Assembly: GCA_947471505.1 (NCBI GenBank) | Contig: CANIWM010000066.1 | Span: forward strand, 1-34,840 | Direction: 5' to 3' | Source: Chthoniobacteraceae bacterium | GTDB lineage: Bacteria; Verrucomicrobiota; Verrucomicrobiia; Chthoniobacterales; Chthoniobacteraceae | Length of the DNA stretch: 34,840 bases | Shown: piece after piece, positions 115 through 10,986 of the stretch | How positions within the stretch are numbered: the first letter of the stretch is position 1 | Layout: each line of letters starts with the position of its first letter | The notes under the pieces: generated by a model | Database searches by the model: none | What the model saw: only the letters and a program-made list of their open reading frames with translations | What the model was told of the DNA's origin: nothing | Program-made: the position numbers and the translations under genes

Positions 115-3100
115 TCACATCCGGCTAACTGCTTTATTTAGGGTGAATGAAGCGCGGCGATTCAGGCGGAACTCAAGTGTCTGCATCGTAGGCACGCCGC
201 TCGTGAGTTCGAGTGTGCTGATGACTTGGTTCGCGGTGCGTTCGGCGGCGGTGGCGGCGACTGTGGGATTCGTGTTCGCGAGGAATTCGGCGAGGTTTTT
301 TATCCCGTCGCCGTCTGAATCTCCATCCGTCGCTGCGCCGGGGATGCCGTGGCTGGCGGTCCAGGTGTCGAAGGTGTGGAGCACCGTCACTGTCACGGCC
401 GCGCTCGTCACGCTGCCGCCGGGTCCGGTGAAAGTGACCGTGTAATTACCGTCGTTCATCGTGGATGCCGCAGTGATGTAATATGTGAGCGTGGTGGCTG
501 CGGAATATGCACCGCTCGCGCCGCTGGGGATGGGTGCGCCGTTGAAGTTCCACTGGTAGGTCGTGGCGTTCAGCGCCATCGCACCGATGGGTATGGTGCT
601 CCCGGCGATACCGACCGTCGGGCTCGATAGATACGAGATGACGGGTGCAGTGCCTTGCGCGGCGTTGGCCATGTTTTGCGTCTGCCATAGCGGAGCGACA
701 GCGCCGGTGCCGTCGGGCAGGCGACCCAGCGCGTAGAGGTAGCCGCCCACAGTGCCAAAGCTCTGCGCGTCGAGTTGGGTGTCGTCGTTCTGCGCGAGGC
801 GGAGGTATTCGCCTCCGAAGTCGATTTCAAAACCCAAGTCCAGCGACGAGGATGTGGCGAAGCCGCTGCCCGCGACGTAACTGAGCGGCGGAAAGGCGAA
901 TTTGCGCCGCCCCACTTCGCTCGGGTCGTCGCTGAGATATAGGCCGCCGAGCGCGACGGGCAGTGCGCTGGTGTTGAAGAATTCCACGCTGCTCGTGGTC
1001 CATTCGTTGATGCGGATTGCGCTCACTGGGCCGAGTGCGGCGGCAGCGGCGTTCGTGGCGCTGCGCGTGGGCGTGGCGAGTAGCGCCCATGTTCCGCCGC
1101 TGGTGCGGCCAATGGTCTTGTCGGCGATTTGTTGTCCGTAAGTCACGGTGTCCACCAACTGGCCAGCGGGGTTGAGCAGGTCCAGAATACGGGTTCCGTC
1201 GCCGATGATTCCGACGTAGAGACCAGAGTTCAAATTGGGACTGCTCACGGTCGAAGGCAGTGCATTGACCGGGTCGCACCAAATCGCGAGATGCCCTCCC
1301 GCTGAAATGCTTGTGCCCGATGGAAACGTCCAAGCCGACGTCCAATCATCGGCATAACGACCGAGCCTGAGCCTCCAGCCGCCGAGCGCGATGCTGCTGT
1401 CGGTCGGATTTCGCAATTCCAACCACGCGGGGCGGCGTCCCCACGGGGCGTTGTCTCCATCATAATTTGTGACGAGGATTTCGTTAAGCTGCGCGGTGCC
1501 GGTGATCGCGATGTGATTGGCGATGCCGGGACTTGGGATGAGCGCGGCGATGGTCGCGGTGCCGTCCGGCAGGCGTCCGGTTGAGACACTCTGGGTCTGC
1601 GCGGTGTATGTCAGTGAATCGGCCTGCGTGCCGCCGGAGTCGCGGATCGTTAGCGTTGTGCCGGCTCCGGGGAGGTTGAAATCGAGGGCGTCGGCGCGGT
1701 TCGTGCCTTCGTTGCAATAGAGCCGCGCCCAGCCGAGCGGGGCGACGGCGGCGAGGCACTTGTATTGGAAAAGCTGGGCATCCGTGCTGGCGTAGAAGCC
1801 ACCGAGCACGACGGGCTGGGTGGCGTGGGTGTTGTAGAGTTCGAGCCAATCGGCGAGGCCGGGGCGCGGGTTGGCGAGCCATTCGTTGAGGCGCAAGTTG
1901 CTTTGTGCGGCGGAGGTCGCGGCGATGTTGGCCGCGTCGGGTGTGGGCGTGGTGAGCGTCCAGTTGCCGCTCACTTTTCCGAAGGAATAATTCGCCGCCT
2001 GCGGGCCGTAGCGGACGCTGGCGGCAGTGATTCCGTTGACGCGGAGTTCGATGAGCCCGTGGTCCGCAGGCAGGCGCGGAGTGCCGGTGACTCCCGGCAG
2101 CGTAGTATCGTGGAAATGGGCGAGCAGAAACGCACCGGGGGCTACGATCGTCCCGTTTGGAAAAGCGGTGATGGGAGCGCCGTCCACATGAAGATACGCG
2201 AAGTTCAGCGTGATGGCGCTGCCGCTGGTATTTTGCAGTTCGATGAAGCCGGGATTCGCACCGGAGAACGTGTAAGCACCGCCGTTTTTCACGAGGAATT
2301 CGCTGAACTCCATGCCCGCAGCGAGTGCGCTGTTGGTGGCACCGGGCGTGCCGTTGCTTGCGGCACTGGCCTTCCAGTTTGCGGCGTCGTCGGGATCGCC
2401 ATCGGCATTGATAATTTCGAGCGAAGGGCCATTGCCGTCTGCCGCGACAGGCCACGGCCTAGCATCGCGATAATCCACGCTCACGATGACGCGCCCGCCC
2501 GCATCGTGCAGCGACACACGCTCGCCGCCATTATCGAGGTTGCCGCCGAAAAATGCACCGACTGCGACTCCGGGATACGTCGCTGCGAAAACCGTCGGGC
2601 TGTCGTTGTTTGCGAGGACGAAGTGGTCGCCCGCGCCCAGCACGGTGCCGAGCGGGATGACGCAATCCACGCCGCCAAAATACCAGCCGGACATATCCAC
2701 GGGCTGAGTGCCGATGTTGCGCAACTCGATGAATTCCTTCGCGTCGTCGTTCGTGTTGCCGGGCGGATTATACATGATCTCCGTGATGCGGACGGTCGGG
2801 ATGAGCGAGTCATTTCCCACGGTGAAAGTCTGCTCGTTCAGCGCGCTCCAGATCGAGCCGTTGAAAGCGCGAACCTTCAGCGTGGTTGTAGCATTCACGG
2901 TGTAAGTTGCCCCCGGCGAAGCGGACACAGCGCCCGTCGCGACGGTGCTCGCATAGTACACACGCGGGTCCGTGCCGTTCGTCGTGTAGTAAAAAGTCGT
3001 CGCGTTCGACGTGCCCGATGGCAGCGAGGCGACGTTCGCAAATTTCACCACAAAACCTGCCGCGACACGCTGCGACGCAATCGCTACATCGGTCACGTTG

Positions 3101-6054
3101 TTCCGAATCTCCGGCGCATTCACCGAGGGATAAAGCACGAGCGCAGGCGCGGTGGGCGTCGCGCGGAATTGGCCGACGACGTTTGCTGTCCGCAGGGGAA
3201 AATAAGTGCCGTTGAGCCGCGTCAGTTCGGACAGCCAGTGCGTCGTCGTCGTCTGCGTCGCGCCGCCGGAGTACCACTTGCCGTTCCACGTATAGACGAT
3301 GTTGTAGGGCGCGCTTGTGTATTGATGCACCATCATCCGGTAGTCGCCCCAGCGTGCGGATTCGGCGGCTTGCGCGTCGGCATTCACGATAGCGGTCCAC
3401 TTACTGTGGCGGGCGATATTTGCAGCAGGCAGCAGCGCGCCGTCGGGGGAAATCATGTGCTTGTGGACTTGGTCGGCGAAATCCAGCGCGAACTGCGCGT
3501 TCGTGCGCAAGCGGTTCTGCGCGGCGACGGGCGGGTAAAGCGCACCCGTCACGCGGTTCACCGTCTCGCTCCACAGCAGGTTCTCTTGGTCCCACGGGAG
3601 CAGGCGAAACTTCGAGCCGGGCTTGCTGCTTTTGACGAAGTACCAGTTCTTGTTGTAGTCCGCCGTCGTCCCCCAATCTTCGTGCCCGACATAGTAGTGG
3701 TGGATCATGTAATCAATGAACCACGGCATATCGAGCTGGCCTTTGAGCGTCTCGTATTCGGCATTAGTGAAAGCGGTCGCCAGCACGCCAGCCGTGGGCA
3801 CGGTGGTGTAAGTCGCGCCCGTCCAGCCGAGTGTCGCCTTCATCGCGTAGTAGGCGGTCATCGTGCCGTTTTTCAGCACACCTTGGTCAATCACATCGTA
3901 GTCCGCTTTATCCCCACCGAAGTAAGCGGCGGCGAAGTCCTCCGCCTCATCCTCGGATGGGTCGTAGGTGCCCCAGTAGATGCCGTTGATGAACAAATTC
4001 ACGTAGCGATGGTGGCTCGCCGCGCGGCCCATCGCGCGGAACGTATCCTTGCTCCACGCATCGCGGATGCGCGTGCCTTTTGGGCGCTGCACGCTGCCGT
4101 CTTGGTGCCGCCAGCTTGAGTTAAAATCCGCCCGCAGCACGAGCTTGTCGAACGACTGCACGGGCGAATCCGGGAACATCTGATAGTCCAACTTTCCCGG
4201 CCCGTAGTCGCCTTTGAACTTCAGCGTGAAGCCGTGCTTCGGGTTCTTGTAGGGCGCTCGGCTCGCGTTGCCGTGCAGGTCAATTCCGCAGTTCACATGG
4301 AACGCCGTGGAGCCGTTCGGCAGCAGCATCTCCAGTGAGCAGGCTTTGGTCAGGTCGGGTTTCACGCTCTCGGATGCGCTCGGATAAATCCCCGTGCTCG
4401 CCGGTCCGAACATGTCATCCGTTTTCATCACGACAGACATCACCGGCAGCGTGCGCAGACATGTCTTGATGCGCTCTAGGTTCGTCTTTCCCGCCGCGTT
4501 GATGGCTCCTGTGTCGTCGTATTTGTTCGGGTCGTTCCACACTTTGTCGTCCATGCCGTAGTCGGCTGGAATCTGCCCCGCGACGTAACCAGCGAGCGGC
4601 ACAGCGGCGGCGGTGAAAGTCGCATTCGTCCCCCAACTCGTCGGCAGTGCCACGCCGCCGACGGTGGGCACGAGATTCGCCCCGGAGTATGGCGGCGAGG
4701 TCTGCGCCGTTACCGCATCGAGGTAGATATAGCTGTGCGTGATCGTCTCGCTCGGCACGAAATTCGTCGCGAAAGCCACCGCCCGCAGCAGCGTCGTCGT
4801 GCTTACGGAAAGCGGCGTCGCGTAAAGCGTGCTCGCAGCCGTCGGCACCGAGCCGTCCAGCGTGTAGCGGATGCTGGCGCTCGGCGTCGCGCACGAGAGA
4901 ACCACGGTGAACGGGTCTTTGAAAAACCCACGCGTCACCGACGCTGTCGGGTTCGCCGCAATCGTCGTGAGCGTGCCCGCAGCGTTCGGCGCGTTCGGAG
5001 TGGATGGGGTGAAATAGAACAGCGCCCCAGCCGTCCCGCGCCCGTAGCTGTAGTCCGTGCGCTGCGCGGGGAACGGCGCGAAACTCGGCGATGTCAGCAC
5101 GCGCGGCGAGTCCGGCGTGTAGAGCTGCAACGTCCCGCCGTTTTCGTTCAGCTTGAAGTTCGTGTGCAGATTCCCGCTTCCGGGTTTGCGGTCTTTGCCG
5201 GAGGCAAAAACGAGCAGCGTTCCACCGCTCGCAATCGTCCGCGAAGGTAGCACCCATTTGTCCTGCTCGTCCACGTCGTTCGTCAGCGCCCAGCCCGCGA
5301 CATTCACCGCCGAAGCGCCCGTATTCAGCAGCTCGATCCAGTCGTTCTGCTCCGCGTTCTCATCCGCCAGCCCGAGCCCGTTTTGTGCGAGGAATTCATT
5401 GATGACCACCGTGCCCGTCGCCCCCACTGTCACGCTCCAGCCCGCACCGGCAAAGGGATTACCCACACCATCCACGATACCGTGCCCGCCCGCCCAAGTG
5501 AACGCCAGCGCCCCCGCCGCTGGCTGCGTGATGGTGAAAAGATACGGCCCCACGCCAGCGCCCGTCACCGCCGTCGCAGGCGTTCCGTTCACCAGCAAAT
5601 CCGCCGCATCCACCCCCGACACGAGTTCGGAAAAAGACACCTGCACCTGCGTCAGCACGCCCATCGTCGCACCCGCCAACGGCGTCGTCTGCACGAGCGT
5701 CGGGGCAACCGTATCCGACAGCGAAAACGCATACGCGCTCGGCGCGACAAACGCCCCCGTCCCCAGCCCCGCGATGCCGTGGTCCGCCTCCCAAGACACG
5801 CTCACCGTCCCCGCGCCCGGCTGCGTGAACGTGAACACATACGGACCCGCGCCCGAGCCCGTGACGCTCACGGGCGCCTCGCCGTTTACCAAAAGATCAT
5901 TCGAGCCCACGCCCGTCACCGCTTCGGAAAAAGTGACGCTGAGGGAGGAGAACGACGACACCGAAGAACCATTCGCAGGCGAAAGCGTGGAAACCGTCGG
6001 AGCCGCAAATGCAGACGCGACAAAAACAAGAGAGAGGAGTGAACGGGTGAGCAT
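115..6054 (-). CDS. Giant secreted CotH-kinase-like / lamin-tail-domain protein
   Basis: The product is about 1979 residues. The start chosen is the ATG at 6054, because it puts a signal peptide (MLTRSLLSLVFVASAFA) at the N-terminus; an upstream in-frame ATG at 6114 would hide it. In order: two similar Ig-like repeats (about residues 19-112 and 115-210, both with the pattern LLVNG..VTG.G.GPY.FT.TQP), a lamin-tail domain (about 215-310), a chitobiase/HEX C-terminal-like domain with YTLDGSVPT (about 370-445), and a CotH-like kinase domain (about 540-835, with GIYWGTYDPSEDEAEDF and LLPWDQENLLW). A second chitobiase-like domain follows, then about five more lamin-tail-like units (motifs ITEIMYNP, LRLNEW, AQLNEI, IRINEW), an Ig-like domain, and a C-terminal calcium-type motif DGDSDGDGIKNLAEFLANTNP-like (thrombospondin type 3/dockerin style). 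Such proteins are common in Verrucomicrobiota and are exported. CotH homologues phosphorylate spore-coat proteins elsewhere; the substrate here is unknown. Confidence 0.88.
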   Translation of the reverse strand: MLTRSLLSLVFVASAFAAPTVSTLSPANGSSVSSFSSLSVTFSEAVTGVGSNDLLVNGEAPVSVTGSGAGPYVFTFTQPGAGTVSVSWEADHGIAGLGTGAFVAPSAYAFSLSDTVAPTLVQTTPLAGATMGVLTQVQVSFSELVSGVDAADLLVNGTPATAVTGAGVGPYLFTITQPAAGALAFTWAGGHGIVDGVGNPFAGAGWSVTVGATGTVVINEFLAQNGLGLADENAEQNDWIELLNTGASAVNVAGWALTNDVDEQDKWVLPSRTIASGGTLLVFASGKDRKPGSGNLHTNFKLNENGGTLQLYTPDSPRVLTSPSFAPFPAQRTDYSYGRGTAGALFYFTPSTPNAPNAAGTLTTIAANPTASVTRGFFKDPFTVVLSCATPSASIRYTLDGSVPTAASTLYATPLSVSTTTLLRAVAFATNFVPSETITHSYIYLDAVTAQTSPPYSGANLVPTVGGVALPTSWGTNATFTAAAVPLAGYVAGQIPADYGMDDKVWNDPNKYDDTGAINAAGKTNLERIKTCLRTLPVMSVVMKTDDMFGPASTGIYPSASESVKPDLTKACSLEMLLPNGSTAFHVNCGIDLHGNASRAPYKNPKHGFTLKFKGDYGPGKLDYQMFPDSPVQSFDKLVLRADFNSSWRHQDGSVQRPKGTRIRDAWSKDTFRAMGRAASHHRYVNLFINGIYWGTYDPSEDEAEDFAAAYFGGDKADYDVIDQGVLKNGTMTAYYAMKATLGWTGATYTTVPTAGVLATAFTNAEYETLKGQLDMPWFIDYMIHHYYVGHEDWGTTADYNKNWYFVKSSKPGSKFRLLPWDQENLLWSETVNRVTGALYPPVAAQNRLRTNAQFALDFADQVHKHMISPDGALLPAANIARHSKWTAIVNADAQAAESARWGDYRMMVHQYTSAPYNIVYTWNGKWYSGGATQTTTTHWLSELTRLNGTYFPLRTANVVGQFRATPTAPALVLYPSVNAPEIRNNVTDVAIASQRVAAGFVVKFANVASLPSGTSNATTFYYTTNGTDPRVYYASTVATGAVSASPGATYTVNATTTLKVRAFNGSIWSALNEQTFTVGNDSLIPTVRITEIMYNPPGNTNDDAKEFIELRNIGTQPVDMSGWYFGGVDCVIPLGTVLGAGDHFVLANNDSPTVFAATYPGVAVGAFFGGNLDNGGERVSLHDAGGRVIVSVDYRDARPWPVAADGNGPSLEIINADGDPDDAANWKASAASNGTPGATNSALAAGMEFSEFLVKNGGAYTFSGANPGFIELQNTSGSAITLNFAYLHVDGAPITAFPNGTIVAPGAFLLAHFHDTTLPGVTGTPRLPADHGLIELRVNGITAASVRYGPQAANYSFGKVSGNWTLTTPTPDAANIAATSAAQSNLRLNEWLANPRPGLADWLELYNTHATQPVVLGGFYASTDAQLFQYKCLAAVAPLGWARLYCNEGTNRADALDFNLPGAGTTLTIRDSGGTQADSLTYTAQTQSVSTGRLPDGTATIAALIPSPGIANHIAITGTAQLNEILVTNYDGDNAPWGRRPAWLELRNPTDSSIALGGWRLRLGRYADDWTSAWTFPSGTSISAGGHLAIWCDPVNALPSTVSSPNLNSGLYVGIIGDGTRILDLLNPAGQLVDTVTYGQQIADKTIGRTSGGTWALLATPTRSATNAAAAALGPVSAIRINEWTTSSVEFFNTSALPVALGGLYLSDDPSEVGRRKFAFPPLSYVAGSGFATSSSLDLGFEIDFGGEYLRLAQNDDTQLDAQSFGTVGGYLYALGRLPDGTGAVAPLWQTQNMANAAQGTAPVISYLSSPTVGIAGSTIPIGAMALNATTYQWNFNGAPIPSGASGAYSAATTLTYYITAASTMNDGNYTVTFTGPGGSVTSAAVTVTVLHTFDTWTASHGIPGAATDGDSDGDGIKNLAEFLANTNPTVAATAAERTANQVISTLELTSGVPTMQTLEFRLNRRASFTLNKAVSRM

Positions 6055-6116: not shown

Positions 6117-6190
6117 ATTTTGCGCCATTTCGCTGGTGAGACTTCCAGATTTGCTGTGTGAGGACTCGCCGATGGTCGATGCGGCCGAGC

Positions 6191-6460
6191 TCGGGGTGAA
6201 AGCGCCCGTCGCTCTGGGCGCATGGCGTTCACGTCTGGGTCGTGTAAGGGTCGCTCTGGGTCGGTGCGTGAATATGGTAGGGAATCGTCAACGAATGTCA
6301 GGGTTGCCGCGCGCCCACCTATGGGTGCTGTCAACAGGGCTCGGGGTTACCGCGAGGTTACCTCTGGGTAATGTTAGCGCGACTCTGGGTTAGTGCGCGT
6401 TGAGGTCTGGGTTAGTGCGCGTCGAGGTCTGGGTTAGTGCGCGTCGAGGTCTGGGTTGCG
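6191..6460. repeat. Degenerate 21-22 bp phased array of TCTGGGT motifs in a gene-free region
   Basis: Thirteen GGG runs, nearly all followed by T and many preceded by TCT, start at 6194, 6216, 6237, 6258, 6280, 6301, 6323, 6344, 6366, 6387, 6409, 6431 and 6453. Every step is 21 or 22 bases (mean about 21.6). The last three full units (6384-6449) are near-identical 22-mers beginning TCTGGGTTAGTGCGCG. The earlier units keep only the GGG(T) core and the spacing. A period of 22 is not a multiple of three and no frame is conserved, so the array is not coding. The rest of the 597-base gap (6055-6190 and 6461-6651) holds the dyad described separately and otherwise nothing I recognise. The array lies upstream of the CotH-type gene and downstream of the glucokinase gene. 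Confidence 0.85.
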
Positions 6461-6651
6461 TTTTTCTCTGTAAAATATCCGTCGGCAGCCCTCTGGATCC
6501 CATAAAGCGCGGCGGGATCGGAGCCGAGAGCGCCATGCAAGGTGGAAATGAGGCGGACGAGCGCAGCCCCCCCGCTCAGATTACGTCAACACTCACTACA
6601 AACGCGAAAACATCGCTGTTTGGGATCGTTTGCTGCCTCGTATCCTGACGT

Positions 6652-7446
6652 TTAGCTCCGGCGGAAGATGTCGGTGCTCCCAGGGCTGCGCTCTTTCCAG
6701 AGCCAGATACCGCCGCGCATCCCGAGTTCGTTCGATACGAGTTGGACGTCTTTTGGGAGTTCGAATTTGAGGGCTTTCGCATTGCCGCCGCCGATGTAGA
6801 GGCGGTCGAAATTGGTCAGGATGCGGAGTGTGTCGATGGCCTTTTCGACTCGCTTGCTCCAGCGTCGTTTGCCGGCTGCTTCGAGCGCTGCATTGCCGAG
6901 TTGTTCTTCGTAGGTTTGCCCTTTGCGGAAGGGGTGGTGTGCGAGTTCCAAGTGACACGAGAGCCTTCCGTCCTCGGCGAGGCTGGAGCCGAGGCCGGTC
7001 CCGAGCGTGATGACCATTTCAACTCCTTTGCCCGAAATCGCGCCCAGTCCTTGGATGTCCGCATCGTTGAGTACCCGCACGGGTTTTCCGAGTTTTTCGG
7101 TGAGCGCCAAGTCGAGGTCGAATCCCTGCCATGCTTCCTGCCCGAGATTGTGGGCCGTCATGATCTTCCCGCGGCGCACGACGCCGGGGAAGCCGACGGA
7201 GACGCGGGCATAGCCGGTGAGCGGTTCCACGAGTTTCGCGAGCGTGTCCACGATGGTCTTCGGGTCGCGCTGTTCTGGCGTGGCGATGCGGACGCGCTCG
7301 GTGATCATGTTGCCTTTGGAGTCGAGTACCGAGGCCTTCAAGCCCGTGCCGCCGATGTCGATGGCGAGCGTCTTTGGCCCTGGTGCGGGAGCGGGGAGGG
7401 GAGTGTCGGTTTTTGGAGTAGCGGTTTTTTTGGAGACTGCGTTCAT
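6652..7446 (-). CDS. ppgK: ROK-family kinase, probable polyphosphate glucokinase
   Basis: The product is 264 residues, the usual size for polyphosphate-dependent glucokinases, which phosphorylate glucose to glucose 6-phosphate in the cytoplasm. After a Pro/Thr/Lys-rich N-terminal tail of about 24 residues come the phosphate-binding motif AIDIGGTGLK (residues 28-37), the catalytic-Asp region VLNDADIQGLG (125-135), a second phosphate loop ITLGTGLGSS (146-155) and IGGGNAKAL (218-226). The ATG at 7446 was chosen because the extension upstream to 7611 reads through an intergenic inverted repeat and looks non-coding. There is no helix-turn-helix, so this is a sugar kinase and not a ROK repressor. 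It is divergent from the lactate dehydrogenase gene, with 281 bases between them. The kinase family is certain; the phosphoryl donor (polyphosphate or ATP) is inferred from overall resemblance. Confidence 0.82.
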   Translation of the reverse strand: MNAVSKKTATPKTDTPLPAPAPGPKTLAIDIGGTGLKASVLDSKGNMITERVRIATPEQRDPKTIVDTLAKLVEPLTGYARVSVGFPGVVRRGKIMTAHNLGQEAWQGFDLDLALTEKLGKPVRVLNDADIQGLGAISGKGVEMVITLGTGLGSSLAEDGRLSCHLELAHHPFRKGQTYEEQLGNAALEAAGKRRWSKRVEKAIDTLRILTNFDRLYIGGGNAKALKFELPKDVQLVSNELGMRGGIWLWKERSPGSTDIFRRS

Positions 7447-7508: not shown

Positions 7509-7686
7509 GGTTGAACCCGAACGCCGCGAATTGAACCGCAGATGAACGCGAATTTTCGCAGATATTGTTGCTCGCGACTGCTCTGAGGGGACCGGCGTTT
7601 CTCGCCCGCACGAAAATCTCCAGCTCTCGCTTATCTGCGTTGATTTGCGCGTATCTGCGGTTTCAAAAGCGGCGTTCGGGTTGAAC
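7509..7686. repeat. Intergenic inverted repeat (CCGCAGAT/ATCTGCGG type)
   Basis: Two arms of about 54 bases lie in inverted orientation at 7509-7563 and 7633-7686. Shared blocks include AACCCGAACGCCGC, AACCGCAGAT and CGCAGAT. The arms match well but with scattered differences, and about 69 bases separate them. Intergenic repeats of this style (ACCGCAGAT..ACGC..) are widespread in Verrucomicrobiota genomes. The element fills most of the region between the divergent glucokinase and lactate dehydrogenase genes, so their promoters must lie within or beside it. It encodes nothing. Confidence 0.75.

Positions 7687-10913: not shown

Positions 10914-10986
<73 letters not shown>

What the first reader, a model, noticed from the sequence alone, without database searches (positions are those of the whole stretch)
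6191..6460. Thirteen GGG(T) motifs held in a strict 21-22 bp register in a gene-free region
GGG starts fall at 6194, 6216, 6237, 6258, 6280, 6301, 6323, 6344, 6366, 6387, 6409, 6431 and 6453. The motif and spacing are kept while most other bases have drifted, except for three fresh 22-bp copies at the right end. About two helical turns per unit puts every G-tract on the same DNA face. This suggests an array bound by a protein multimer, a bending element, or an array growing by unit duplication at one end. It fits no feature type I know: it lacks CRISPR spacers, is not coding, and is not a simple microsatellite.
Basis: seen in the sequence. Interest (0 to 1): 0.75.

Follow-up and report, generated by a model that had tools for sequence, protein, structure and literature searches.

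The report
Phased 21-bp intergenic repeat array
A stretch of non-coding bacterial DNA repeats a short motif every two turns of the helix; sampled relatives carry many unrelated arrays with the same spacing, which may be protein-binding sites, and this is unusual and testable.

Summary
Confirmed: 13 GGG starts at 6194-6453 lie 21 or 22 bp apart; Markov-generated windows reach at most 4. The array is closed in all six frames and shows no RNA-fold signal.

A homologous array lies elsewhere in this genome (C116, after a rimO-like gene) and, orthologously, in a MAG titled Prosthecobacter debontii. The orthologues differ by one whole 22-bp unit. Columns conserved in the window array changed in 3/120 cases between them, the others in 13/138, like rimO third positions (8.9%).

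In a 1.18-Mb sample of this genome, 17 of 24 arrays called intergenic have periods of exactly 21, 42 or 63 bp, with unrelated units; 6 of 16 called coding have period 21. Three further families with a second copy here also pair a constrained motif with a drifting spacer.

Best reading: a lineage-specific class of dispersed, helically phased arrays that gain and lose whole units, with a motif kept on one DNA face, probably for cooperative protein binding. The protein is unknown; evidence against sub-unit indels is alignment-dependent.

The parts
6179..6193 (+). left boundary of the array element; aligns with the left edge of the homologous arrays
   Evidence: alignment A2; homology is weak here
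6194..6452 (+). twelve array units of 21 or 22 bp, each starting at GGG; consensus TCTGGGT-N3/4-G with a drifted spacer
6384..6457 (+). homogeneous 22-bp units near the right end (TCTGGGTTAGTGCGCGTCGAGG)
   Evidence: TRF, 3.4 copies, 98% matches
6453..6471 (+). right boundary: last GGGTT then GCGTTTTTCTCTGT; the BLAST match with array C116 stops at 6471
115..6054 (-). neighbouring gene to the left, transcribed away from the array: protein with Lamin Tail Domains and a CotH kinase domain
   Evidence: Pfam
6652..7446 (-). neighbouring gene to the right: ROK family protein; its 3' end faces the array
   Evidence: Pfam

Best explanation
The feature is a non-coding array element of about 290 bp: twelve units of two DNA helical turns, closed on the right by a T-rich end ending in TCTCTGT. 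SHOWN: homologous arrays exist at a second place in this genome and at one orthologous place in a sister species. The orthologous pair differs by one whole unit. Within these arrays the spacing stays at 21-22 bp, although single-base changes between 21 and 22 do occur. Substitutions avoid the motif columns. Many arrays called intergenic in this genome and in some congeners share the 21-bp register but not the sequence. INFERRED: units are added and lost whole by recombination or slippage; selection keeps one short motif per unit on the same face because a DNA-binding protein binds it cooperatively, forming a local nucleoprotein stretch that could act as a regulatory, boundary or nucleoid element. 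UNKNOWN: the protein, the consequence for neighbouring genes, and why unrelated arrays share one unit length.
For: Register against controls: 13 versus at most 4. Homologous arrays in G000:C116 and G006:C38; a sequence profile finds two arrays in G000, one in G006 and a fragment at G000:C11 among 10 genus genomes. Whole-unit differences: 22 bp (C116/G006:C38) and 42 bp = two units (C40/G006:C34). Constraint: columns conserved in the nine older window units have 3 of 120 substitutions between C116 and G006:C38 against 13 of 138 elsewhere, p=0.035. In the three other families with a second copy: 20/130 vs 52/143, p=1e-4 (C12/C105); 19/180 vs 27/72, p=2.6e-6 (C40/C37); 12/120 vs 46/163, p=1.7e-4 (C11/C54; 18/119 vs 50/165, p=0.003, against G006:C113). 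Class: 17 of 24 arrays called intergenic in the sample have period 21, 42 or 63.
Against: No binding protein, expression or binding data. As a whole the C116 array is not clearly slower than synonymous-like sites (16/258 = 6.2% versus rimO third positions 8.9%), and the information-content version of the column test gives p=0.075. For C12/C105 one of the two cross-validated correlations is weak (rho -0.36, p=0.11). Sub-unit indels: 0 with 159 substitutions in three pairs against 4 with 61 in flanks (p=0.007), but the window/C116 pair has three 1-bp gaps with 105 substitutions and C11/C54 can be aligned with five small gaps; counting all, the contrast is not significant (p=0.12). Period 21 is also the commonest among arrays called coding (6 of 16), so the register is not confined to non-coding DNA, or the gene caller errs. 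Arrays lie between divergent, convergent and co-directional genes. Unrelated motifs would need many proteins, or one with little sequence demand. C40/C37 substitutions are uneven by codon phase (11/21/28).
Confidence: 0.42

Rival explanations
1. A mutational ruler: some replication, repair or recombination process in this genus makes tandem duplications of two helical turns, so arrays of unrelated sequence share the length; the arrays have no function.
For: The period is shared by arrays with unrelated units, including 6 of 16 called coding; 14 of 18 remain at 21, 42 or 63 after dropping six intergenic-called arrays with coding-like codon scores; copy number changes by whole units; no common gene context.
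Against: Neutral drift should hit all columns equally, but motif columns change less in the four families that could be tested.
Confidence: 0.29
2. A homotypic cluster of sites for one dedicated transcription factor acting on the neighbouring CotH/LTD gene.
For: The array lies just upstream of that gene's start; direct repeats at two-turn spacing suit cooperative binding.
Against: The homologous array lies downstream of a rimO-like gene and in front of a gene without a Pfam match; in G006 no such array lies within 750 bp downstream of the ROK gene. Two other arrays of the class lie between convergent genes (L056, L073).
Confidence: 0.1
3. A small dispersed (mobile) repeat element: the array is the body of a non-autonomous element moved between loci.
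For: Homology is bounded and flanks differ in families C66/C116, C12/C105 and C11/C54; Y1 transposases occur in all 10 genus genomes searched, and in 2 of 20 Y1 neighbourhoods a 21- or 84-bp array lies within about 310 bp of the gene (L178, L185); homology edges of three families fall at CTCTGT.
Against: Only one or two arrays per genome per family; no terminal inverted repeats or target duplications were established; 16 of 20 Y1 neighbourhoods hold no array of 21-bp multiple.
Confidence: 0.11
4. A transcribed non-coding RNA with repeated protein-binding or structural modules.
For: T-rich right end (GTTTTTCTCTGT); repeated CUCUGGGU on the plus strand.
Against: RNA fold z-scores 0.07, -1.10, 0.71 and 0.21 for both strands of two arrays; the only Rfam match above the gathering score in the window is a tRNA.
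Confidence: 0.06
5. A decayed or unrecognised protein-coding repeat (heptads of 7 codons).
For: 21, 42 and 63 are multiples of 3; 6 of 16 arrays called coding have period 21; the C116 homologue has one open minus frame of 165 codons.
Against: The window array mixes 21 and 22 bp and is closed in six frames; the open frame at C116 has a negative codon score. Substitutions in C12/C105 show no codon phase (23/28/32).
Confidence: 0.02

Closest known systems
Bacterial intergenic minisatellites / VNTRs
   Same: head-to-tail units of about 20 bp, intergenic, copy number changes by whole units; intergenic tandem repeats tied to non-coding deletions are reported for lake Planctomycetota (PMC9426551, passages seen)
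   Different: units diverge strongly except for a constrained motif; one unit length shared by many unrelated arrays in the genome
Plasmid iterons
   Same: direct repeats, 17-22 bp in the plasmids listed (longer ones exist); cooperative binding is abolished by a half-turn shift (PMC4980987, passages seen)
   Different: no plasmid or phage match; no replication gene among the neighbours scanned; many unrelated arrays on one genome
Tandem repeats of Borg elements
   Same: many arrays per genome with units almost unique to each site (PMC9879509, passages seen)
   Different: Borg intergenic units are of mixed length (14-38% divisible by three) and near-perfect; here one length dominates and units have drifted
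REP/BIME and REPIN elements with RAYT transposases
   Same: short intergenic repeats; clusters occur; O. terrae (Verrucomicrobia) is said to be rich in GTAG repeats (PMC3733652, passages seen)
   Different: REP families have many dispersed palindromic copies; this unit is not palindromic by reading and has one or two loci
SV40 21-bp GC-box repeats (recalled, no call)
   Same: G-rich 21-bp direct repeats with binding sites
   Different: viral promoter, three copies, known factor

Membership tests
Intergenic minisatellite (tandem-repeat array) | head-to-tail units of constant length in non-coding DNA | tested here: met
Intergenic minisatellite (tandem-repeat array) | copy number varies by whole units between relatives | tested here: met
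   one 22-bp unit for the homologous C116 array; the window copy itself has no orthologue to compare
Intergenic minisatellite (tandem-repeat array) | units near-identical | tested here: not met
   only the last three units; the others share mainly the motif
Plasmid iterons | direct repeats at helical spacing | tested here: met
   21-22 bp
Plasmid iterons | next to a Rep gene or origin on a plasmid | tested here: not met
   five window proteins and two at C116 scanned, none a Rep protein; no plasmid match
CRISPR | near-identical repeats separated by unique spacers of one length | tested here: not met
   constant part about 8-10 bp, remainder 11-13 bp and alignable between homologues
REP/REPIN | palindromic body and many dispersed copies | tested here: not met
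   two arrays in the genome; no palindrome evident in the unit by reading
Structured RNA | fold more stable than shuffles | tested here: not met
Curved-DNA element | intrinsic curvature above shuffles, kept between homologues | tested here: not met
   z 2.58 for the window array, 0.28 for C116; 2.30 and 0.81 for C40/C37 (model parameters recalled)
Cooperative protein-binding array | motif columns under constraint relative to spacers | tested here: met
   modest for the window's own family
Cooperative protein-binding array | a protein binds the motif | not testable with these tools
   needs gel shift, pull-down or ChIP

The most novel reading that the evidence does not exclude
A genus-level class of dispersed array elements, perhaps a few dozen per genome and unrelated in sequence, is built on one two-turn unit by a common duplicating process. 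Each array is then kept by selection on a face-aligned motif, so that these bacteria carry a widespread system of phased protein-binding tracts in their intergenic DNA.
Probability: 0.31. Interest if true: 0.8.

Novelty: new variant of a known kind. Interest (0 to 1): 0.6.

Why it matters
Bacterial tandem arrays are often used simply as typing markers. Here one genome, and some of its congeners, show one dominant unit length, two helical turns, across unrelated arrays, with constrained motifs and drifting spacers in the four families that could be tested. If this reflects a protein that reads DNA in two-turn steps, it is a new route to bacterial chromosome organisation. If it reflects a fixed-length duplication process, it exposes a mutational mechanism. 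Either can be tested at the bench.

Tried and rejected
Coding origin: rejected for the window array (closed in six frames). Structured RNA: fold z-scores near zero; folded as single-stranded DNA, z is -1.54, with 8 of 100 shuffles as stable. Intrinsic curvature: not kept between homologues, although 4 of 14 arrays (C1, C15, C9 and the G001 array) exceed all 200 shuffles. Phage or plasmid origin: no match; the unit-pair pattern had no viral match and matched one contig of the genome collection.

Y1 transposase (RAYT) link: such genes occur in all 10 genus genomes searched. Of 20 neighbourhoods read, 4 hold arrays of 21-bp multiples, two of them within about 310 bp of the gene (L178, L185); 79 kb would hold about one by the intergenic density. 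Not established, not excluded.

A CRISPR-like reading of the C11 array (a 25-bp block with 17-39-bp spacers, one resembling the C66 unit) was dropped when the C54 paralogue proved to carry homologous spacers at the same positions.

TCTCTGT at array edges: found in 5 of 17 families (p=5.5e-6, 2569 words tested) and in 2 of 11 held-out arrays, both of which are related to arrays in the first set. In the reverse test 11 of 23 intergenic sites lie near 21-register DNA against 6.75% of random intergenic points, but five of those sites are one locus and two belong to an IS-like repeated contig end whose third copy is not near an array. The orientation to the array is inconsistent. Kept as a lead only.

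The genus-wide count is a sample: mostly contig starts of the larger contigs, and in the congeners few arrays. My gene caller (trained on long ORFs) can misplace coding repeats; six arrays with coding-like codon scores were dropped for the 14-of-18 count, and adjacent arrays on one stretch are not independent. Controls outside the genus are only G018 (0 of 5 intergenic arrays) and G030 (none found).

Full report
OBSERVATION. Chains of GGG at 21/22 bp reach at most 4 in 300 Markov-generated windows at each of orders 2-4, and at most 6 in 20,000 order-2 sequences of the region itself. The array is closed in all six frames. It lies between a minus-strand gene for a Lamin-Tail-Domain/CotH protein and a minus-strand ROK gene. 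Over its twelve units, GGG is invariant, the fourth base is T in 83%, the ninth column G in 92%, and the closing TCT 92/83/75%; the other columns range from 33 to 75%.

HOMOLOGUES. A 331-base query found one further array in the window's genome, at C116:6639-6858, and one in a congeneric genome, G006:C38; 2 of 38 genomes match, the window's own included. The C116 array starts some 30-50 bp after the stop codon of a gene with UPF0004, Radical_SAM and TRAM domains; I call it rimO-like from recall. The G006 array is at the same place. Its contig matches, by length and pattern hits, a public MAG record titled Prosthecobacter debontii. Among 40 genomes of the family, the C116 array again hit only these two. 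A sequence-only profile of the right end gave two arrays in G000, one in G006 and a fragment at G000:C11 in 10 genus genomes. The window array and C116 can be aligned end to end and share a T-rich right end ending in CTCTGT; the BLAST match stops at window position 6471. I read the first 750 bp downstream of the ROK gene in 5 congeners: none shows this array, and G001 has an unrelated 42-43-bp T/A-tract array there.

DYNAMICS AND CONSTRAINT. C116 and G006:C38 differ inside the array by one extra 22-bp unit, about third from the right end, and by substitutions. Over the twelve paired units there are 16 substitutions in 258 bases. rimO third codon positions differ by 8.9% (42 of 471), immediate flanks by 31-33% and the next intergenic segments by about 10%. 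The array as a whole is therefore not clearly slower than synonymous-like sites. Columns that are conserved in the nine older units of the window array changed in 3 of 120 cases and the rest in 13 of 138 (p=0.035; Spearman -0.54, p=0.01; the information-content version p=0.075).

A CLASS, NOT A SINGLETON. In 59 stretches of the window's genome (1.18 Mb, chosen by contig number; the one stretch chosen for content, L048, left out) TRF found 24 arrays that my gene caller places in intergenic DNA. Of these, 9 have period 21, 5 period 42 and 3 period 63; the others are 15, 18, 24, 36, 41, 82 and 138. Dropping six with coding-like codon scores leaves 14 of 18. Of 16 arrays called coding, 6 also have period 21, so the register is not confined to non-coding DNA or some calls are wrong. 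Congeners give 5 of 6 (G003), 2 of 3 (G007), 3 of 4 (G006; 21, 42 and 105), 0 of 1 (G001) and 0 of 1 (G008). G018, another genus of the family, gives 0 of 5, and G030, another family, no intergenic array. The unit sequences differ between arrays. Arrays with mixed 21/22 or 22-bp units (window, C116, C90) cannot be codon heptads; a few arrays found by pattern have single spacings of 20 or 23.

THREE FURTHER FAMILIES. Constraint could be tested only where a homologous array exists. Of six arrays put into one joined query, two (C12 and C40) have a second full array in the same genome (C105, C37) and one (C40) has one in G006; the other four have none beyond a short partial match for C1. A separate query showed that C11 has a second array at C54 and one in G006. 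C12/C105 align over 363 bp without a gap, with 83 substitutions spread over codon phases as 23/28/32. C40/C37 align over 344 bp with 60 substitutions (11/21/28). With column conservation taken from one half of the units and substitutions from the other, conserved columns changed in 20/130 against 52/143 (C12/C105, p=1e-4; correlations -0.62, p=0.003, and -0.36, p=0.11) and 19/180 against 27/72 (C40/C37, p=2.6e-6; correlations -0.72 and -0.71). In C11/C54 the repeated block changed in 12/120 and the spacers in 46/163 (p=1.7e-4; against G006:C113, 18/119 and 50/165, p=0.003). C40 and its G006 homologue differ by an internal gap of 42 bp, two units.

INDELS. Three pairs (C12/C105, C40/C37, C116/C38) show no sub-unit indel with 159 substitutions, against 4 with 61 in the flanks of C116 (p=0.007). 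This does not hold for every pair: window/C116 has three 1-bp gaps with 105 substitutions, and C11/C54, aligned with low gap cost, five small gaps. Counting all of these gives p=0.12. Gap-free local alignments also favour zero. The register is kept in length, but I cannot claim that indels are rarer than in flanks.

MECHANISM. Four families with unrelated units share an anatomy: a constrained motif or block, a drifting remainder and a two-turn step. Two of the three families with a G006 counterpart differ from it by whole units. The simplest reading is cooperative binding on one face, as with iterons, where a half-turn shift abolishes cooperativity (PMC4980987, passages). The unit length shared by unrelated arrays is not explained by binding alone; a fixed-length duplication process may create them and selection keep some. 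RNA folding does not support an RNA role, and curvature is not kept between homologues. No protein was identified.

LITERATURE. Nine searches of the held library listed no title on 21-bp-register arrays in Verrucomicrobia; only the top rows of each were shown, and most subscription journals are not in that library. Passages were seen from PMC4060949, PMC2884548, PMC9426551, PMC9879509, PMC3733652, PMC3116915 and PMC4980987; none was read in full.

Noticed in passing
L139:8270-8440 (G000:C42) and L153:310-640 (G006:C14): 21-bp GTACC arrays that switch strand in the middle (AAGTACC units, then GGTACTT units), apparently related between the two genomes with different unit numbers.
   Followed up: partly
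L036, downstream of the ROK gene in G001: A different array of about 42-43 bp with phased T5/A5 tracts and CCGGAGGCTTCGG-like inverted repeats; strong predicted curvature (z 5.67).
   Followed up: partly
window 6465-6471; L025:1349; L163:1429; L046:19535; L122:118: TCTCTGT or CTCTGT lies at or near the edge of several unrelated arrays, and homology edges of three families fall on it.
   Followed up: partly
L046, L121 and L137, positions 1-147: Three contigs begin with the same IS-like end (contains TGCATCTCTCTGTTGTTGCA), two of them within 250 bp of a 21-bp array.
   Followed up: no
L105:177-5221 (G018): Arrays built on AAAGTGTCTGTCCCT at 33, 41 and 68 bp in another genus of the family, with no 21-bp period.
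   Followed up: no
L012:6950-7090 (G000:C116) and window 7528-7665: Inverted elements of the type TTGAACCGCAGAT...ATCTGCGGTTCAAA about 100 bp (C116) and 1 kb (window) from the arrays; the C116 one is 90% identical in G006.
   Followed up: no
L178:188-655 and 1564-1755 (G000:C100), beside a Y1 transposase gene: A 121-bp tandem array of hairpin-like GGAGCGGGGCTTTCC sequence and an 84-bp array near the gene.
   Followed up: no
window 10914-10986: tRNA gene on the minus strand (Rfam RF00005).
   Followed up: no
L120:1-125 (G000:C23): The contig starts with a run of the 8-mer GGAGCGTC.
   Followed up: no
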